The position numbers were made by a program, and so were the translations under genes. A stretch of DNA of 51,901 nucleotides, taken from a virus. Positions 3,236 through 40,710 of the stretch are shown piece after piece. The notes under the pieces are model-generated. The model ran no database searches and had not been told where the DNA came from. It saw only the letters and a program-made list of their open reading frames with translations. The stretch's first letter is position 1, and each line of letters opens with the position of its first letter. The stretch covers positions 1 through 51,901 of IMG/VR virus record IMGVR_UViG_3300046467_000510; one strand, given 5' to 3'.

Positions 3236-4203
3236 GTTACGAAGTTATTGAGCGCCGCAAACTTCCATCCACAGCGTGGAACGATTACGTCGACGCGCAT
3301 CCACAAGCGTGGTTCTGGCATCGGGAAGAATGGTTGAACTATTCGCTCGACTATACGAAACACTCAATCGATAAGTCGTTTGCTGTACTTAGGAACGGCG
3401 ACGTTGTCGGCATCTGTCCAGCCATCACGTGCGGTGTTGAAATTCGTATGGGCGACGATGCGTGTATTGGCCCGTTAGCGTCTTCTCCTGAAGCTACGTG
3501 TGAGGTTATAGACGCCATCCGTTCCCGCTTAACGAACTACATTGCGAACTGGAGATGGAATAGGGGTAGAGGAGAGGTTATTACTGGTCCACTCCTTAGC
3601 TTGTCGACAGAGCGGTGGGTGTATTTATCGCGATGGCTGACGTCTGTCGTACCGTTAAACGTTGGCGAGAAAGAACGATGGAGAGGCGTGCGAAAGAGTT
3701 ATCGGTCGTTAATTAACCAATCGAAAGTTCGACACCAGATTGTTCGTAAGGATATGTGGGACGACTACAAGACGTGCCATCAACAATGCGCGACTCGTCC
3801 TCGCTCCAATAACACTTACGACCATCAACACGATTGGTTCCGACGTAAGCTTGCACACGTCTATTGTGTTTATGGGGAGCACGATAAGAGTCACCCCGCG
3901 TCGGTTATGGTGACCTCAGCGCGAGGCGGCTCTGGTTCGTCGGACTGTTCAAGTCAGTCGCTCTCCACCCTGTCGGCCGCATATGTCATCACCTATAAGA
4001 ACAGAGCCTACTATGCGAGCGGTCCGTCGCTCGTTAAGAACACGCAACACCGTTTACAGTGGGAGGTCATACAAGACCTGTCCTCGTTAAACGTTCACGA
4101 CTACGAGCTTGGATGGATTAGCGACGACGGTGTCGGCTTTTTTAAAAGCGGATGGGGACACGAGACTGAAGTAATCGAGAACGTATCTGGTCAGGTTAAT
4201 TAG
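3226..4203 (+). CDS. FemAB-like / GNAT-fold acyltransferase
   Basis: A 325 aa protein whose layout recalls FemAB/BioF2-type transferases. It has an N-terminal 'HPQAWFWHREEWL' segment of the kind that starts the first GNAT-like half, and a C-terminal half with 'YYASGPSLVK', 'LQWEVIQDL' and 'YELGWI...GVGFFKSGWG'. The last stretch matches the G-x-x-x-F-K-x-x-G/F-G ending of FemAB-like proteins. In cell-envelope clusters these move amino-acyl or acyl groups onto sugars or peptides. The GTG start at 3226 lies inside the end of the GNAT gene. The fold call is moderate; the substrate is unknown. Confidence 0.6.
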   Translation: MALGYEVIERRKLPSTAWNDYVDAHPQAWFWHREEWLNYSLDYTKHSIDKSFAVLRNGDVVGICPAITCGVEIRMGDDACIGPLASSPEATCEVIDAIRSRLTNYIANWRWNRGRGEVITGPLLSLSTERWVYLSRWLTSVVPLNVGEKERWRGVRKSYRSLINQSKVRHQIVRKDMWDDYKTCHQQCATRPRSNNTYDHQHDWFRRKLAHVYCVYGEHDKSHPASVMVTSARGGSGSSDCSSQSLSTLSAAYVITYKNRAYYASGPSLVKNTQHRLQWEVIQDLSSLNVHDYELGWISDDGVGFFKSGWGHETEVIENVSGQVN

Positions 4204-7107: not shown

Positions 7108-7932
7108 TTGAGGCTGTATACGGCTGGCGAAAGTGCCACGCACCTTGAACCTCTCATGGTAGGGGTGGGTCTTCGTAATCGACTAGTCAGCTTTGCGTTT
7201 AAGCGAGGCAGTCCGTTCCGGTGGTGGGTTAGCGAACGACCAGAAACAGGTGGGCCGCCAGACGGCTCCTCTGTTTTTTTAGATAGCGGAGCGTTCTCCG
7301 CGTTAACGCAAAACATAACTATCGATCTCGACACTTACATTAAATGTATTCACACGTATAAAAAGCATCTCGATGTTTATGCGTCCCTCGACGTTATTGG
7401 AGACGCGAAAGCGTCGCAGGCGAATACCGATTACATGGAGTCTTGTGGCCTCTGGCCGCTCCCAACGTTCCATCGTGGATCCAAATGGACTGACCTGCAC
7501 TATATGTGCGAGCGGTATGACCACTTCGCTCTTGGTGGCGTGGCAAGCGAGACAACCAGACGTGAATCGATACAGCCGTGGCTAGACGGCTGTCTATCAA
7601 TCATTAAAGGGTATTGGCCTCGCCGTATTCACGGCTTCGGCATACAGGCACAGTGGGCGTTAGAGCGCTATCCGTTTTACAGTTCTGACTCGTCATCTGT
7701 TGTGATGGCCGCGTCCTTTGGAGGCGTTAATCGATTTCAGAACGGTAAATACTTTTGCACACACTGGAAAGAATACGCTGCCGAAAAAGTTACCTCGTCC
7801 ATTGTTGATACGGTCGAACAGTCAGCCTATATAGAACGAGAACGCTTAAACGCTATCGCGTTGGTGGCGTTTGAGAAACACCTTACTGAGTTATGGCGCG
7901 TTAGGGGTGTCGACTGGGACACGTTAAGTTGA
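7108..7932 (+). CDS. dpdA: DpdA-like DNA guanine transglycosylase, copy 1
   Basis: A 274 aa relative of tRNA-guanine transglycosylase. Asp59 in 'FLDSGAFSA' matches the base-binding DSGGF motif. 'FALGGVAS' and 'HGFGIQAQW' match the substrate-binding loops, and Asp194 in 'YPFYSSDSSS' is where the nucleophilic Asp should be. The Cys-x-Cys-x2-Cys zinc site of tRNA enzymes is absent. Phage DpdA proteins swap guanine in DNA for a 7-deazaguanine base. The flanking queD-queE-folE genes, which make that base, support DNA modification over tRNA work. Start is TTG at 7108, one base after the previous stop, with an AAAGGG Shine-Dalgarno. Confidence 0.82.
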   Translation: MRLYTAGESATHLEPLMVGVGLRNRLVSFAFKRGSPFRWWVSERPETGGPPDGSSVFLDSGAFSALTQNITIDLDTYIKCIHTYKKHLDVYASLDVIGDAKASQANTDYMESCGLWPLPTFHRGSKWTDLHYMCERYDHFALGGVASETTRRESIQPWLDGCLSIIKGYWPRRIHGFGIQAQWALERYPFYSSDSSSVVMAASFGGVNRFQNGKYFCTHWKEYAAEKVTSSIVDTVEQSAYIERERLNAIALVAFEKHLTELWRVRGVDWDTLS

Positions 7933-8741
7933 TGTTGTTTTATCACGCTGGCACACACGGATTAGATGATGGGTCGAACGAGGTCCTGTTTAAACACGGA
8001 CTCCGTTCTCGGCTGTTAGCCTATGGAGCTATTCCGGACCAGCACCAACAGTTCTGGTTAGACGACGCGCCCGATAACGCGCAGGTCTTTATCGATAGCG
8101 GAGCGTTTAGCGCCCATACACAAGGCAAGCCAGTTTCGTTAACTAAGTATTGTGAGTTCTTAACGAAGTATCCCAACGTGTCTGAATACGCGGCTCTCGA
8201 CGTTATTGGTGACCCCATGTTGAGTCGTTGTAATACGGAGGAGATGGAAGTGCGCGGCCTTAAACCAATCCCGACGTTTCATAGGGGGTCATCATGGCAA
8301 GAGTTACAACGTATTGCGGAACGTTACGAGAGGTTCGCGCTTGGAGGTGTTGCAAGCGAGGGGACAACGCGAGGCGTGTTACAGCCGTGGCTTGATGGGT
8401 GCTTTTATTGGATCAAGAAACACTGGCCGCGACGGGTTCATGGTTTTGGAATTCAAGCACAATGGGCGATCGAGAGGTATCCGTTTTACAGTTGCGACTC
8501 GACTAACGTTTTAAAGTGCGCGGCCTTTGGAGATATTATTCGGTTTCGTAACGGACGTATCTCTATACGCGACTGGGAGGAAGACGCTAAGAAGACTTTT
8601 GATGGTGGCATTATGGGAGGTCCGAACGGAGAGCGGCCTTACTTAGAACGTCAACTGGCAAACCTCGAAGCACTAAATGGCCTTCGGGTTTATGTAACAG
8701 AGTTATGGACGAAGCGAGGGGTGACATGGCACGACAAGTAG
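7932..8741 (+). CDS. dpdA: DpdA-like DNA guanine transglycosylase, copy 2
   Basis: A paralogue of the gene just before it, sharing long blocks such as 'DSGAFSA', 'LDVIGD', 'PTFHRGS', 'FALGGVASE', 'QPWLDGC' and 'HGFGIQAQWA'. Both catalytic aspartates are kept (Asp55 in IDSGAF, Asp189 in YSCDS), so neither copy looks like a dead subunit. The N-terminal 50 residues and the last 60 differ most, where DNA or partner recognition could diverge. ATG 7932 overlaps the previous TGA; TTG 7929 is an alternative. The pair may be a heteromer, or two enzymes with different sequence targets. Confidence 0.82.
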   Translation: MLFYHAGTHGLDDGSNEVLFKHGLRSRLLAYGAIPDQHQQFWLDDAPDNAQVFIDSGAFSAHTQGKPVSLTKYCEFLTKYPNVSEYAALDVIGDPMLSRCNTEEMEVRGLKPIPTFHRGSSWQELQRIAERYERFALGGVASEGTTRGVLQPWLDGCFYWIKKHWPRRVHGFGIQAQWAIERYPFYSCDSTNVLKCAAFGDIIRFRNGRISIRDWEEDAKKTFDGGIMGGPNGERPYLERQLANLEALNGLRVYVTELWTKRGVTWHDK

Positions 8742-9370
8742 AAACGCCTTGGAAGAACACGGCTGTCGATAAGCTGATACACGCCGACTGGAATTACAAA
8801 GTTGACGATGACGACATGACGACAAAGTTGGTCGCCAATATAAAGCGAAACGGACAAGTCGAAAGTATTTTGGTTCGCAATATGCCTGACGGGGTATTTG
8901 AAGTGGTTAATGGGAATCACCGCCTTGTTGCGTTCCAGCAACTCGGTATTAAGGAGGTTATGTGTTTCCACCTTGGTGACATTGACCTGAAGGCCGCGCA
9001 ACGTTTAGCGATCGAAGTTAACGAAACGGGATTTGATGCAAGTTATCCGGCTCTGGCAAAACTGGTTCGTGATATTGCCGGAGGAGACGATTTTACTGAC
9101 GACTCGTTAGCTGACCTTGCTGAGACCTTACCGTTCCACCATGACCAACTTAATCACTTCGTGAATCTGGCCGATGTGAATTGGGAACAACAGTATGGGG
9201 AACCTGAAGGCGACGGAACGTCCTTACGAAAAGCGCCTCCCGTAAAGCTAACGGAAGAACAGCGTGTTATTTTCAATCGCGCCTGTGCCAAGATTCGCGA
9301 GGACGATCGAGACATTTCAGAAGGTCGTTGTCTTGAATTAATTTGTGCCGACTTTTTAGCGGGGGTGTAA
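8726..9370 (+). CDS. ParB-like domain protein beside dpdA (possible DpdB-like partner)
   Basis: About 214 aa with a ParB/sulfiredoxin-type N-terminal domain. 'ANIKRNGQVESILVR' is followed by 'EVVNGNHRLVAFQQLG', the G-x-H-R nucleotide-binding box of ParB-N folds. The middle is acidic and no ParB helix-turn-helix is obvious. In bacterial dpd clusters DpdA works with the ParB-like protein DpdB, so a similar partner role is a reasonable inference. I prefer ATG 8726 over ATG 8705 because GAGGGGTG lies just upstream and the overlap with dpdA shrinks to 16 bases. Its stop overlaps the queD start (TAATG). Confidence 0.72.
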   Translation: MARQVETPWKNTAVDKLIHADWNYKVDDDDMTTKLVANIKRNGQVESILVRNMPDGVFEVVNGNHRLVAFQQLGIKEVMCFHLGDIDLKAAQRLAIEVNETGFDASYPALAKLVRDIAGGDDFTDDSLADLAETLPFHHDQLNHFVNLADVNWEQQYGEPEGDGTSLRKAPPVKLTEEQRVIFNRACAKIREDDRDISEGRCLELICADFLAGV

Positions 9371-9819
9371 TGAATTCGACTATCGCAAAAACATTTCACT
9401 TTTCAGCAAGCCACATGCTGACAGGATTACGTGGAAGTCATAAGTGTATGAACATGCACGGCCATAACTACGAGGTCGAGGTCGTTATTGAGGGACCGGT
9501 TAATTCAAAAACGGGTTTCGTGTTCGATTACGGAGACATGTCTGAAATTGATGACTGGATCCAAGTAAATTTCGACCATGCCCATATCTGTTTTAACGAA
9601 TCCGAGGCCACGATTGTAAAAGACGCATGTATCGATATTCTAAATTCTCGAAAAGACGATCTGAACGATTACGATGCTCGCGTTTACGTATTGGGACGTT
9701 CAGCGTCGGCTGAAAACATTGCTGATGAAATCTTTCAGGCGGCTCGGGCTGTTACTCCGTTAGTAAAATCTGTTCGGGTACGAGAAACGGAGAATACATG
9801 GGCGAAGAACCGAAATTAG
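9370..9819 (+). CDS. queD: 6-carboxy-tetrahydropterin synthase
   Basis: A QueD of 149 aa. Zinc ligands His15 ('FSASHML') and His30/His32 ('MHGHNYEV') and the catalytic Cys26 are in place. 'FVFDYGDM' and 'VRVRETENTWA', with the substrate-binding Glu, complete the signature. It converts dihydroneopterin triphosphate to 6-carboxy-tetrahydropterin, the second step to 7-deazaguanines. ATG 9370 overlaps the ParB-like stop, and the queE start falls 22 bases inside this gene, as expected for a tightly translated pathway unit. Confidence 0.93.
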   Translation: MNSTIAKTFHFSASHMLTGLRGSHKCMNMHGHNYEVEVVIEGPVNSKTGFVFDYGDMSEIDDWIQVNFDHAHICFNESEATIVKDACIDILNSRKDDLNDYDARVYVLGRSASAENIADEIFQAARAVTPLVKSVRVRETENTWAKNRN

Positions 9820-10508
9820 CCGTTAGTGAAATCTTCGGCCCAACGTTCCAAGGCGAAGGACCGTCTATTGGTCGACCCTGTCTCTTTTTACGTTTGGCGG
9901 GATGCAACTTGGCGTGTTCGTGGTGCGATACGCCTTATACGTGGGACTGGAATCGCTACGACAAGTCTAAAGAGGTCTCTCTACGCACCATGTGGTCTGT
10001 CATGTCCGAATTACGACGGCTCTCCCGAGTACACCGTCAACCAATCAAGCATCTCGTGATTAGCGGTGGCGAGCCGATGCTTCAAGGGAAGGCGTTAAAC
10101 ACGTTATGCGAATGGCTACGACGAGAGCGCTGGACAACGGAAATAGAAACAGCCGGAACGGTGTTACCGCCATCGCTAACGTTTGTGGACCACTACAATG
10201 TGAGTCCCAAGTTATCAAACAGCGATAACCCACTAGAAGCCCGTTATCGACCTGACGTATTAGACCGACTAAACGAAGCGCCATCAAAGGCGTTTAAATT
10301 TGTGGTAGAGCAACCAAAAGATTTTAATGAGATTGATGAATTAGTTAACAAGCATGATTTATTTCCCGTCTATGTAATGCCTGAAGGGATTGAAGCGAAT
10401 CAAATTCACGAACGTCTGGCTGAAATTGCTGACGAGGCTATAAAGCGAAACTATCGAATCACCACGAGGCTACATGTCACGATCTACGGAAACCAGCGCG
10501 GAGTTTAA
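9798..10508 (+). CDS. queE: 7-carboxy-7-deazaguanine synthase (radical SAM)
   Basis: A 236 aa QueE. 'EIFGPTFQGEGP' at the N-terminus, the C-x3-C-x2-C cluster motif in 'GCNLACSWCDT' (Cys36, 40, 43), 'VISGGEPMLQ', 'IETAGT' and the ending 'TIYGNQRGV' are typical. It rearranges 6-carboxy-tetrahydropterin to 7-carboxy-7-deazaguanine (CDG) with SAM and a 4Fe-4S cluster. A long insert around 'RYDKSKEVSLRTMWS' matches the variable region of the family. No QueC (PP-loop SGGxDS motif) is found to carry CDG on to preQ0. It overlaps folE by 35 bases. Confidence 0.93.
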   Translation: MGEEPKLAVSEIFGPTFQGEGPSIGRPCLFLRLAGCNLACSWCDTPYTWDWNRYDKSKEVSLRTMWSVMSELRRLSRVHRQPIKHLVISGGEPMLQGKALNTLCEWLRRERWTTEIETAGTVLPPSLTFVDHYNVSPKLSNSDNPLEARYRPDVLDRLNEAPSKAFKFVVEQPKDFNEIDELVNKHDLFPVYVMPEGIEANQIHERLAEIADEAIKRNYRITTRLHVTIYGNQRGV

Positions 10509-11040
10509 CCGGTTAAGGGAACTCGGCCGACAACTGCTAGTCGAGATTGGGGAAGACCCGACGAGAGAGGGGTTACGAGAAACACCTGATCGATTTGCTC
10601 GCTATTGGCAGGAGTTTGTAAATTACAACGCCGGTAAACTCGAAACGACGTTCGACAGCGTCAGTATTGACCAAATGGTCATCGTCACAGGAATGCGTGT
10701 CTGGTCGTTGTGCGAACATCACCTTCTTCCGTTCTGGTGCGACGTATCGGTTGGCTATATCGCCCAGAAAGAAGTTATCGGCCTTTCTAAAATCGCTCGC
10801 ATCTGTCATAAGCACGCCCATAAGCTTCAACTTCAGGAGCGCCTCGTTACTGACATTGCAACGGACATTTCCGATATTAGTAAGACGGACAGCGTGGCCG
10901 TTATCGCGAGAGGTGTCCATACGTGTATGGCGATGCGAGGCATCAAGTCGGATGGCATAATGGTGTCCTCAGTTATGCGTGGACGCTTTAAAGAGAGCCA
11001 CGAAACGCGTATGGAGTTCCTCCAACTCTCAAGCACCTAA
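10474..11040 (+). CDS. folE: GTP cyclohydrolase I
   Basis: A standard GCYH-IA of 188 aa. 'GEDPTREGLRETPDRFARYW', zinc ligands Cys80 and His83 in 'LCEHHLLPF', 'GLSKIARI' and the third ligand Cys151 in 'GVHTCMAMRG' are all present. It makes dihydroneopterin triphosphate from GTP, feeding QueD. The first ten residues are encoded inside the queE end. GAGG about seven bases before the ATG supports this start. Carrying its own FolE lets the phage raise precursor flux above the host level. Confidence 0.95.
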   Translation: MSRSTETSAEFNRLRELGRQLLVEIGEDPTREGLRETPDRFARYWQEFVNYNAGKLETTFDSVSIDQMVIVTGMRVWSLCEHHLLPFWCDVSVGYIAQKEVIGLSKIARICHKHAHKLQLQERLVTDIATDISDISKTDSVAVIARGVHTCMAMRGIKSDGIMVSSVMRGRFKESHETRMEFLQLSST

Positions 11041-11555
11041 TGCAACACTTCGTTAGCGCCCGATTACTCAAAAAGCGTATTGCCGAACTCGCCTTCGAAC
11101 TCTCTCAAGACTACGAAGGACAGAACCTCGTTGTTGTTGGTGTCCTGAACGGGAGTTTTATCCTTATGGCCGACCTGATACGAGCGCTCTATACACATCA
11201 CATCGACCCCGTTGTCGACTTCATTCAAGCGCGAAGCTATACAGGCACACAGCCACGAGACACTCTTACGACCTACGTCGACCTTAGTGTCTCTATTACC
11301 AACCAGCACGTGCTCTTGGTAGACGACATTGTGGACACCGGACGAACCATTACACACGTAAAGGAACGGCTTCAACAACACGACCCATCGTCATTAAAAG
11401 TATTAAGTTTGATTTATAGAGACACTCGTGGCAGTTTATTCACAGCACCTGAATACTTTGGCTATTTACTACGCGATGGATTCGTCGTGGGGTACGGGAT
11501 GGACTTGGACGATAAGATGCGTGGTGCTAACGAGTTACGGACAACCGAGAGGTGA
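11040..11555 (+). CDS. Hypoxanthine/guanine phosphoribosyltransferase-like enzyme
   Basis: A type I phosphoribosyltransferase of 171 aa. 'VVGVLNGSFILMADLIR' is the first loop of HPRTs and 'VLLVDDIVDTGRT' is the PRPP-binding loop. 'DFIQARSYTGT' resembles the flexible catalytic loop, and 'GYGMDLDDKMR' resembles the HPRT C-terminal 'GYGLDYDxxxR'. The reaction turns hypoxanthine or guanine plus PRPP into IMP or GMP. Its ATG overlaps the folE stop, making it the last gene of the modification operon. The likely benefit is to reuse guanine released by DpdA base exchange; that link is inferred. Confidence 0.87.
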   Translation: MQHFVSARLLKKRIAELAFELSQDYEGQNLVVVGVLNGSFILMADLIRALYTHHIDPVVDFIQARSYTGTQPRDTLTTYVDLSVSITNQHVLLVDDIVDTGRTITHVKERLQQHDPSSLKVLSLIYRDTRGSLFTAPEYFGYLLRDGFVVGYGMDLDDKMRGANELRTTER

Positions 11556-39840: not shown

Positions 39841-39878
39841 GCTAGAACGCCGACACCGTTACTCAATCGTTAATCAAC

Positions 39879-39892
39879 TCGCCAGATGGCGA
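39879..39892 (+). promoter_or_regulatory. Hairpin leader 4
   Basis: TCGCC-AGAT-GGCGA, then AGAGGAG and ATG 39907. The closing pair is T-A where leader 1 has G-C, a compensatory change. Confidence 0.7.
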
Positions 39893-39906
39893 AGAGGAGT
39901 AGACAG

Positions 39907-40257
39907 ATGACTGACACAAGAAACAATAAAAGAGAACCCGCAATGTTTGGCTTCCACCTGATTCAATTTGCTAAGGCGTACGCCGGGATGACCGCGACAC
40001 AGCGTGCATCCGTTGAAGTTGCGGTTGAGACAGATGACTACGTTGATGAAGATCAGACTGAGGCGATTTGTTCGCAGATCGCAAAACCACTCGCGATGCT
40101 AATCAACAACATGAGTACTGACGACGACTGCGAAGGGTACGACGAAGATGATCGGTCTGTTGCTGAGCAGTCGCTTATGGAAATGATCGACAGGATTGAT
40201 GGTTGGGCTTACGTGAATAACACTGCCGACCGTACCGTGATCTTGCATTCAAGATAG
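39907..40257 (+). CDS. Small acidic early protein, unknown
   Basis: About 116 aa from ATG 39907, preferred over 39886 because the Shine-Dalgarno and leader hairpin sit just before it. The N-terminus is basic, and the middle is strongly acidic ('DDDCEGYDEDDRSVAEQ'), which may mimic DNA. 'FAKAYAGMTATQRASVEVAV' is helical. DNA-mimic anti-host proteins are often small and acidic, but no family supports that role. Confidence 0.68.
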   Translation: MTDTRNNKREPAMFGFHLIQFAKAYAGMTATQRASVEVAVETDDYVDEDQTEAICSQIAKPLAMLINNMSTDDDCEGYDEDDRSVAEQSLMEMIDRIDGWAYVNNTADRTVILHSR

Positions 40258-40331: not shown

Positions 40332-40486
40332 GGCAGAGTAGCTCAGTCGATAGAGCGCTCTAGAAGTGGACGCTTGCGGTATCCGGTTCGCGACCGGCTC
40401 CATCAACGGCCAAGCTTCTAGCACCTATAGCAGTAGGTGGTCCCTTGACGGGGACAGGGGCGAAGGTTTGATTCCTTCCTCTGCCA
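40332..40486 (+). ncRNA. tRNA-like RNA with a non-canonical ~100-nt middle
   Basis: Acceptor GGCAGAG (40332-40338) pairs perfectly with CTCTGCC (40479-40485), followed by A as discriminator. The D-arm GCTC/GAGC and T-arm GAAGG/CCTTC are perfect. The D-loop has GA for the usual G18-G19, and the T-loop has TTT for TTC, so the G19-C56 contact appears replaced by A19-U56. G15 and C48 are kept. In place of a normal anticodon arm there are 104 bases with hairpins CTAGAAG/CTTCTAG, CACCTA/TAGGTG (six-base loop) and GTCCC/GGGAC. CCA is not encoded. No anticodon can be assigned. Confidence 0.6.
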
Positions 40487-40537
40487 GCCTTTACGTCGTT
40501 CGTTCTGAAATGTAGGTAGTCGTTAATCAAAACTAAT

Positions 40538-40551
40538 TCGCCAAATGGCGA
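40538..40551 (+). promoter_or_regulatory. Hairpin leader 5
   Basis: TCGCC-AAAT-GGCGA, then GGGAGAAG and ATG 40564. Confidence 0.7.
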
Positions 40552-40563
40552 GGGAGAAGACAG

Positions 40564-40710
40564 ATGACAAACTTTAAAGAACAACTCAGTAAGATTCGCC
40601 CGTCGGTCGTTAAGAACACGCAGGTCAACCAGTTGTTCAATCGACAGGCTGTTGACGCGAAGTTCATCGTTCGTTACGAAGGTAAAAAGATTGCGGCTGA
40701 TAGGACATAA
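40564..40710 (+). CDS. Small early protein (48 aa), unknown
   Basis: Basic 48-aa protein beginning MTNFKEQLSKIRPSVVKN and ending in AADRT. It has a good Shine-Dalgarno and the fifth hairpin leader, so it is probably real despite its size. It lies between the tRNA-like gene and the AAA+ gene. No family is recognised. Confidence 0.62.
   Translation: MTNFKEQLSKIRPSVVKNTQVNQLFNRQAVDAKFIVRYEGKKIAADRT

What the first reader, a model, noticed from the sequence alone, without database searches (positions are those of the whole stretch)
40332..40486. tRNA-like RNA with altered elbow contact and an expanded middle
Acceptor, D- and T-arms are perfect, and G19-C56 appears swapped to A19-U56, a paired change that argues for a real folded elbow. 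Yet about 104 bases with three hairpins replace the anticodon and variable arms, and no anticodon or group I intron is seen. It may be a tRNA mimic, decoy or small regulatory RNA using tRNA-processing enzymes.
Basis: partly seen in the sequence, partly recalled or inferred. Interest (0 to 1): 0.8.

Follow-up and report, generated by a model that had tools for sequence, protein, structure and literature searches.

The report
Phage tRNA with a structured insert
A bacterial virus carries a tRNA-shaped RNA whose anticodon region is interrupted by about 80 bases of extra hairpins; this example is unique, but many other phage tRNA genes are interrupted in the same region by short folded inserts of unknown purpose that gene finders miss or mislabel.

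Summary
At 40332-40486 (+), Infernal's tRNA model matches the acceptor, D- and T-arms (41.5 bits, cut-off 29), with a 96-nt local end instead of anticodon and variable arms. ARAGORN and fast Rfam settings miss it. Shuffled windows give none. A19-U56 is real, but most of the few U56 tRNAs in my set of about 1,000 phage tRNAs also have A19.

It is not isolated. Generic D-arm/T-arm scans of viral contigs gave about 100 long tRNA-like elements that ARAGORN misses. At least 30 become ordinary tRNAs when one 22-81-nt insert is removed, most often after position 28 or 29 of the anticodon stem. One group shares a covarying hairpin plus ACAGCAA and occurs in cultured phages, annotated as 114-127-nt tRNAs.

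The window fits the same position: removing exactly two hairpins (40360-40439) restores a 5-bp anticodon stem (chance about 0.02). But its loop is 10 nt, the insert matches no group, and no homologue was found. Best reading: an interrupted phage tRNA, possibly no longer decoding. Splicing is undetermined; a mimic or decoy role is untested. Nearest report: 'enigmatic introns' in Lak megaphage tRNAs (PMC6784885).

The parts
40332..40338 (+). acceptor stem, 5' strand GGCAGAG
   Evidence: pairs 7/7 with 40479-40485; cmscan RF00005, scanner
40341..40356 (+). D-arm GCTC-AGTCGATA-GAGC with G18 (40349) and A19 (40350)
40357..40359 (+). G26 and proposed 5' part of the anticodon stem, C27 U28
   Evidence: C27 and U28 aligned to the stem by cmscan; 5-bp stem CUGUC/GACAG when joined to 40440-40442
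40360..40421 (+). insert, hairpin A: 7-bp outer helix CTAGAAG/CTTCTAG with an inner CCGG hairpin
   Evidence: fold -22.0 kcal/mol
40422..40439 (+). insert, hairpin B: CACCTAT-AGCA-GTAGGTG
   Evidence: fold -7.3 kcal/mol, z -3.9
40440..40457 (+). hairpin C plus A42 G43: remains of the anticodon arm, GTC-CCTTGACGGG-GAC-AG; loop 10 nt (or 6 nt if GUCCC/GGGAC pairs)
   Evidence: fold -9.5 kcal/mol, z -3.2
40458..40461 (+). 4-nt variable region GGGC
   Evidence: cmscan alignment
40462..40478 (+). T-arm GAAGG-TTTGATT-CCTTC with U56 at 40469
40479..40486 (+). acceptor stem, 3' strand CTCTGCC and discriminator A73; GCC follows, not CCA
   Evidence: sequence

Best explanation
This is a phage tRNA gene interrupted inside the 5' strand of its anticodon stem, between positions 28 and 29, by an 80-nt insert made of exactly two hairpins (40360-40439). 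The transcript should fold a normal acceptor, D- and T-arm elbow, so the host's 5' and 3' tRNA-end enzymes could trim it (inferred). The insert is either excised, leaving stem CUGUC/GACAG, or stays as side hairpins on the anticodon stem. Because the restored loop is 10 nt instead of 7, this copy may no longer decode even if spliced. Shown: the tRNA body, the hairpins, the restored stem, and the same insertion site in other phage tRNAs. Inferred: transcription, processing, any splicing, any function.
For: tRNA body: RF00005 41.5 bits, none in shuffles. The two insert hairpins fill 40360-40439 with no base left over; removal gives 5 Watson-Crick pairs with a 4-nt variable region, and 2% of shuffled middles do as well at positions 28/29 or 29/30. 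In other phages, 36 long elements regain a strict anticodon arm when one insert is removed, most often after position 28 or 29, and 34 of these 36 then align across the junction to an intact tRNA over at least 60 nt (the window's joined form also does, E 1e-5). The inserts are structured and conserved: covariation 0.751 against 0.246 shuffled for the ACAGCAA group. The same inserts occur in isolates: CBB, GAP32, Kaldavass, FBKp34, KP13-16, BUCT-ZZ01.
Against: The window's insert matches neither recurrent group (model R1: 0.8 bits) and has no homologue in viral contigs. Its loop is 10 nt and no strict anticodon arm is possible. tRNA isotype is unclear: removing 72-82 nt starting near the same place scores as well or better against several different isotypes. 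The element is alone: no other tRNA in the window. No RtcB, T4 RNA ligase 1 or archaeal-type tRNA endonuclease family in the window.
Confidence: 0.5

Rival explanations
1. A tRNA body used as a scaffold: a stable RNA that never decodes, in which the anticodon arm is replaced by a three-hairpin domain, made by tRNA processing enzymes and acting as mimic, decoy or regulator.
For: No canonical anticodon arm under any single removal; all helices in the element are intact, which argues against decay. Other elements also lack a restorable anticodon arm: L005:4051-4144 (31.4 bits, above cut-off), L010:13144-13341, and the two-bodied L324:483-620.
Against: No conserved homologue shows selection on the middle. 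Recurrent examples elsewhere are mostly ordinary tRNAs once an insert is removed. No synteny with the neighbouring AAA+ ATPase gene in about 80 loci.
Confidence: 0.27
2. A decaying or recombined tRNA gene: the remnant of a rearranged tRNA cluster with no function.
For: Tandem and partial duplications inside tRNA-like elements are common in phages (L119, L128:10641, L076, L077). The element is a singleton with an off-length loop and no encoded CCA.
Against: Acceptor 7/7, D 4/4, T 5/5, matched A19-U56, hairpins B and C very stable: no sign of random decay. The insert holds no second recognisable D- or T-arm.
Confidence: 0.17
3. A class II tRNA: hairpin B is the anticodon arm (loop AUAGCAGU), hairpin C the long variable arm, and hairpin A an insert between 26 and 27.
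For: 5 bp CACCU/AGGUG followed by a 22-nt variable region.
Against: 8-nt loop; 6 unpaired nt after the variable arm; the D-arm and G26 are class I-like.
Confidence: 0.05
4. A known intron type in a tRNA: group I, or archaeal bulge-helix-bulge (BHB).
For: Phage and bacterial group I introns and archaeal tRNA introns exist (PMC3984707, PMC4090602).
Against: An 80-nt insert is below the group I size quoted in the held literature (250-500 nt, abstract of PMC10964413); no Rfam hit; no strict BHB motif in the window and no excess in the other inserts (the strict test also missed the one presumed archaeal example, so it is weak); no PF01974 endonuclease.
Confidence: 0.01

Closest known systems
tRNAs with 'enigmatic introns' in Lak megaphages (Devoto et al. 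2019, PMC6784885)
   Same: phage tRNA genes interrupted by short sequence of unknown type; some inserts may themselves encode a tRNA
   Different: there found in several tRNAs of >540-kb phages with assigned tRNA types; here a lone element in a 52-kb tailed-phage contig, 80-nt two-hairpin insert in the anticodon stem, loop off-length
Short-insert phage tRNAs found here (hairpin-ACAGCAA group, 'F1'; GUUACUU-ending group, 'F2'), e.g. in phages CBB, GAP32, FBKp34, BUCT-ZZ01
   Same: tRNA body plus structured insert, most often after position 28 or 29
   Different: 39-63 nt, conserved motifs, and many leave a strict 7-nt anticodon loop; the window insert has none of the motifs
Archaeal and eukaryotic tRNA introns at non-canonical positions (BHB; PMC4090602)
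   Same: insert in a tRNA arm, including the anticodon stem
   Different: no BHB motif or endonuclease found here; bacterial virus
Group I introns in bacterial tRNA genes (PMC3984707)
   Same: interrupt the anticodon region of tRNAs
   Different: far larger ribozymes; that 2014 review states all phage introns then known lay in protein genes
tmRNA
   Same: tRNA-like ends around a long middle
   Different: a normal D-arm stem is present here, no tag reading frame, not called by ARAGORN

Membership tests
tRNA (RF00005) | acceptor, D and T arms with elbow contacts | tested here: met
   41.5 bits, cut-off 29; elbow with A19-U56
tRNA (RF00005) | 5-bp anticodon stem with 7-nt loop, U33, R37 | tested here: not met
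   none contiguous, none after any single removal; the nearest is a 5-bp stem with a 10-nt loop
phage tRNA with short insert in the anticodon stem (Lak-like and the set found here) | removal of one segment restores an ordinary tRNA that matches intact tRNAs | tested here: inconclusive
   stem restored, p about 0.02; loop off-length; joined form matches tRNAs at E 1e-5 but the isotype is ambiguous
phage tRNA with short insert in the anticodon stem (Lak-like and the set found here) | uninterrupted allele in a relative, or spliced RNA | not testable with these tools
   no homologue found; no RNA data
hairpin-ACAGCAA insert group (F1) | 5-6-bp hairpin followed by ACAGCAA (model R1) | tested here: not met
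   best score near the element 0.8 bits
group I intron | conserved catalytic core, matched by Rfam models | tested here: not met
   no Rfam intron hit at gathering or E<10; insert only 80 nt
archaeal/eukaryotic BHB intron | bulge-helix-bulge at the junctions | tested here: inconclusive
   none found, but the strict test missed the control as well
tmRNA | ARAGORN/Rfam tmRNA model and tag reading frame | tested here: not met

The most novel reading that the evidence does not exclude
Bacterial viruses carry a widespread class of very short (about 40-80 nt), structured, excisable introns in the anticodon stem of their tRNAs, removed by an undescribed mechanism, and the window element is a divergent member with a larger insert; alternatively the inserts stay in place and make tRNAs with an extra domain.
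Probability: 0.3. Interest if true: 0.85.

Novelty: new variant of a known kind. Interest (0 to 1): 0.62.

Why it matters
tRNA gene finders in bacterial mode miss or misname these genes, so their number in phages is underestimated; the same insert in cultured phages is filed as tRNA-Phe, tRNA-Lys, tRNA-Asp or 'OTHER'. If the inserts are spliced, bacteria or their viruses have a tRNA splicing route not described in the papers I could search, one that needs neither a group I ribozyme nor the archaeal endonuclease. If they are not spliced, phages make tRNAs with an extra domain on the anticodon stem. Cultured hosts (Klebsiella, Cronobacter, Pectobacterium, Synechococcus) make this directly testable.

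Tried and rejected
Strict anticodon arm by any single deletion: none. ARAGORN on all deletions: far too permissive to decide. Isotype by BLAST of all deletions: ambiguous; a tRNA-Val(GAC) reading that looked attractive from L128 is not the best scorer. Homologues by D-arm/insert, hairpin B and A19-U56 patterns and by a valine-anticodon pattern: none; L132 and L134 share A19-U56, but their inserts split the T-stem. Genome scan with A19-U56 and a long middle: ordinary tRNAs beside a stray or duplicated T-arm, and one archaeal tRNA with an insert in the anticodon loop. Link to the neighbouring AAA+ gene: not supported over about 80 loci. Phage RNA ligases as splicing partners: looked strong in the first set (9 of 10 insert-bearing phages had RNA ligase 1 or RtcB), but a second set (only 2 of 16 records, many of them long) and a control set (5 of 12) removed it. 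Nested second tRNA in the window insert: checked by eye, no D- or T-arm there.

Full report
OBSERVATION. The window is the whole held record of a virus contig (G000, 51,901 bases) with tailed-phage head, tail, lysis and replication genes. Rfam's tRNA model, given a short stretch, aligns acceptor, D- and T-arms over 40332-40486 with 41.5 bits (gathering cut-off 29) and treats 96 nt in the middle as a local end. ARAGORN finds no tRNA or tmRNA in the window, and cmscan on the whole window with fast filters finds nothing. A descriptor scan (perfect 7-bp acceptor, D-arm, 5-bp T-arm, T-loop consensus) finds only this element in the window and nothing in 40 shuffled windows. So the tRNA body is real and beyond chance.

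The swap A19-U56 is present (40350, 40469). It is a minor variant and not a signature: among 1,026 ARAGORN tRNAs in the loci then fetched, 14 were flagged U56, and by eye at least 10 of those have G-A in the D-loop.

THE MIDDLE. Between D- and T-stems are 105 nt with three hairpins: A 40360-40421, B 40422-40439, C 40440-40455. No removal of one segment gives a strict anticodon arm with a 7-nt loop, U33 and R37.

A WIDER CLASS. In all loci then held, 103 distinct long elements, the window's included, pass the scanner and overlap no ARAGORN tRNA. Thirty-six of them (22-81-nt inserts) regain a strict anticodon arm when one insert is removed. The insertion point is most often after position 28 or 29, and next most often in the anticodon loop. 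Of 37 joined sequences (these 36 plus the window), 35 align across the junction to an intact tRNA over at least 60 nt.

Two recurrent insert groups were seen. F1 (about 40 elements by motif; a few motif matches, such as L066, are probably chance) has a 5-6-bp hairpin, often with a UGU-starting loop, followed after a few nt by ACAGCAA or ACUGCAA. In 24 inserts the helix covaries strongly: 77.8% of cells paired against 48.2% in shuffles, covariation 0.751 against 0.246, no shuffle of 500 as high, and all slid registers far lower. F2 (about 14) ends in GUUACUU or GGUUAUC. A nine-locus Rfam scan containing many of these reports only tRNA hits there, no intron family. Rfam's tRNA model itself stretches over many of the elements, which explains their annotation as long tRNAs. 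F1 inserts are present in cultured phages: Erwinia phage Kaldavass (tRNA-OTHER), Pectobacterium phage CBB (tRNA-Phe, 122 nt), Cronobacter phage GAP32 (tRNA-Lys, 127 nt), Klebsiella phages FBKp34 (tRNA-Asp, 114 nt) and KP13-16 (unannotated), and twice in Synechococcus phage BUCT-ZZ01 (unannotated). Other architectures also occur: a tRNA nested in another's anticodon loop (L059), inserts that split the T-stem (L132, L134), and a two-bodied element (L324).

THE WINDOW IN THAT LIGHT. If 40360-40439, exactly hairpins A plus B, is removed, G26 C27 U28 joins G29 U30 C31. The anticodon stem is then CUGUC/GACAG, five Watson-Crick pairs, with a 4-nt variable region. Shuffled middles give such a stem at positions 28/29 or 29/30, with a loop of 6-10 nt, in 2.0% of cases, and in 6.6% under a looser search. 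This agrees with the insertion site of the other phage tRNAs, and Infernal independently aligned C27 and U28 to the anticodon stem. The remaining loop, CCUUGACGGG, is 10 nt. The joined form's best tRNA matches are weak and of mixed isotype. The insert does not match the F1 model (0.8 bits) and carries no F2 ending. No relative of the element was found in viral contigs by four kinds of pattern, nor beside the closest relatives of the neighbouring AAA+ ATPase gene.

MECHANISM. Shown: the tRNA body, the hairpins, the restored stem, and the class. Inferred: transcription, end processing and any splicing. There is no evidence for known splicing types: no Rfam intron, no BHB excess (a weak test), no archaeal-type tRNA endonuclease in the window or in ten insert-bearing phages. 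RNA ligases looked linked to the inserts in a first set but not after a second set and a control. I commit to 'interrupted tRNA' at 0.5; a non-decoding scaffold RNA (0.27) and a rearranged remnant (0.17) remain open.

KNOWN WORK. The nearest report in the held library is Lak megaphages, whose tRNAs hold 'enigmatic introns', one possibly encoding a tRNA (PMC6784885). A 2014 review states that all phage introns then known lay in protein-coding genes despite many phage tRNAs (PMC3984707). I found no paper describing the ACAGCAA or GUUACUU inserts, but the library lacks most subscription journals and preprints, so that is not proof of novelty.

VERDICT. Observation confirmed; interpretation partly supported. 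The single element is a new variant of a sparsely described kind; the recurrent insert class around it is the more interesting lead.

Noticed in passing
L212:4649-4764, L257:474-587, L063:9483-9600, L259:1548-1668, L261:1501-1610, L263:1498-1610 and others: F1: a conserved, covarying 39-54-nt insert (hairpin, then ACAGCAA or ACUGCAA) inside phage tRNAs, usually after position 28 or 29; present in several cultured phages and no match to any non-tRNA Rfam family in the loci scanned.
   Followed up: partly
L211:3507-3628, L092:148-270, L020:4111-4237, L254:1073-1207, L167:73-197: F2: a second group of 50-63-nt tRNA inserts ending in GUUACUU or GGUUAUC at the same position, with an outer helix and an inner hairpin.
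   Followed up: partly
L059:8142-8294 (-): A second, apparently complete tRNA (7-bp acceptor, D- and T-arm) nested in the anticodon loop of another tRNA, like the Lak phage case.
   Followed up: partly
L324:483-620: Two tRNA bodies in one element: the outer acceptor, D- and T-arms enclose an inner body in permuted order (T-arm, acceptor closed by UUCG, D-arm), apparently joined by a shared long anticodon stem.
   Followed up: no
L132:about 3285-3414 (-), L134:1490-1617: tRNAs with A19-U56 whose roughly 65-nt insert splits the 5' strand of the T-stem (between 51 and 52), with an 18-nt anticodon loop.
   Followed up: partly
L005:4051-4144 and L010:13144-13341: Other anticodon-less tRNA-like elements in phages that share the window's AAA+ ATPase gene; scan of about 80 such loci showed no consistent synteny.
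   Followed up: yes
window 7108-11555: Gene run with 6-pyruvoyl-tetrahydropterin synthase (QueD-like), radical SAM (QueE-like), GTP cyclohydrolase I and two paralogous ORFs without Pfam match: looks like 7-deazaguanine (modified DNA base) synthesis, by inference.
   Followed up: partly
window 39873-39910 and 40524-40565: Near-repeated leader before two ORFs flanking the RNA: GTTAATCAA...CGCCARATGGCGA...GAGRAG...ACAGATGAC, a hairpin upstream of the start codon.
   Followed up: no
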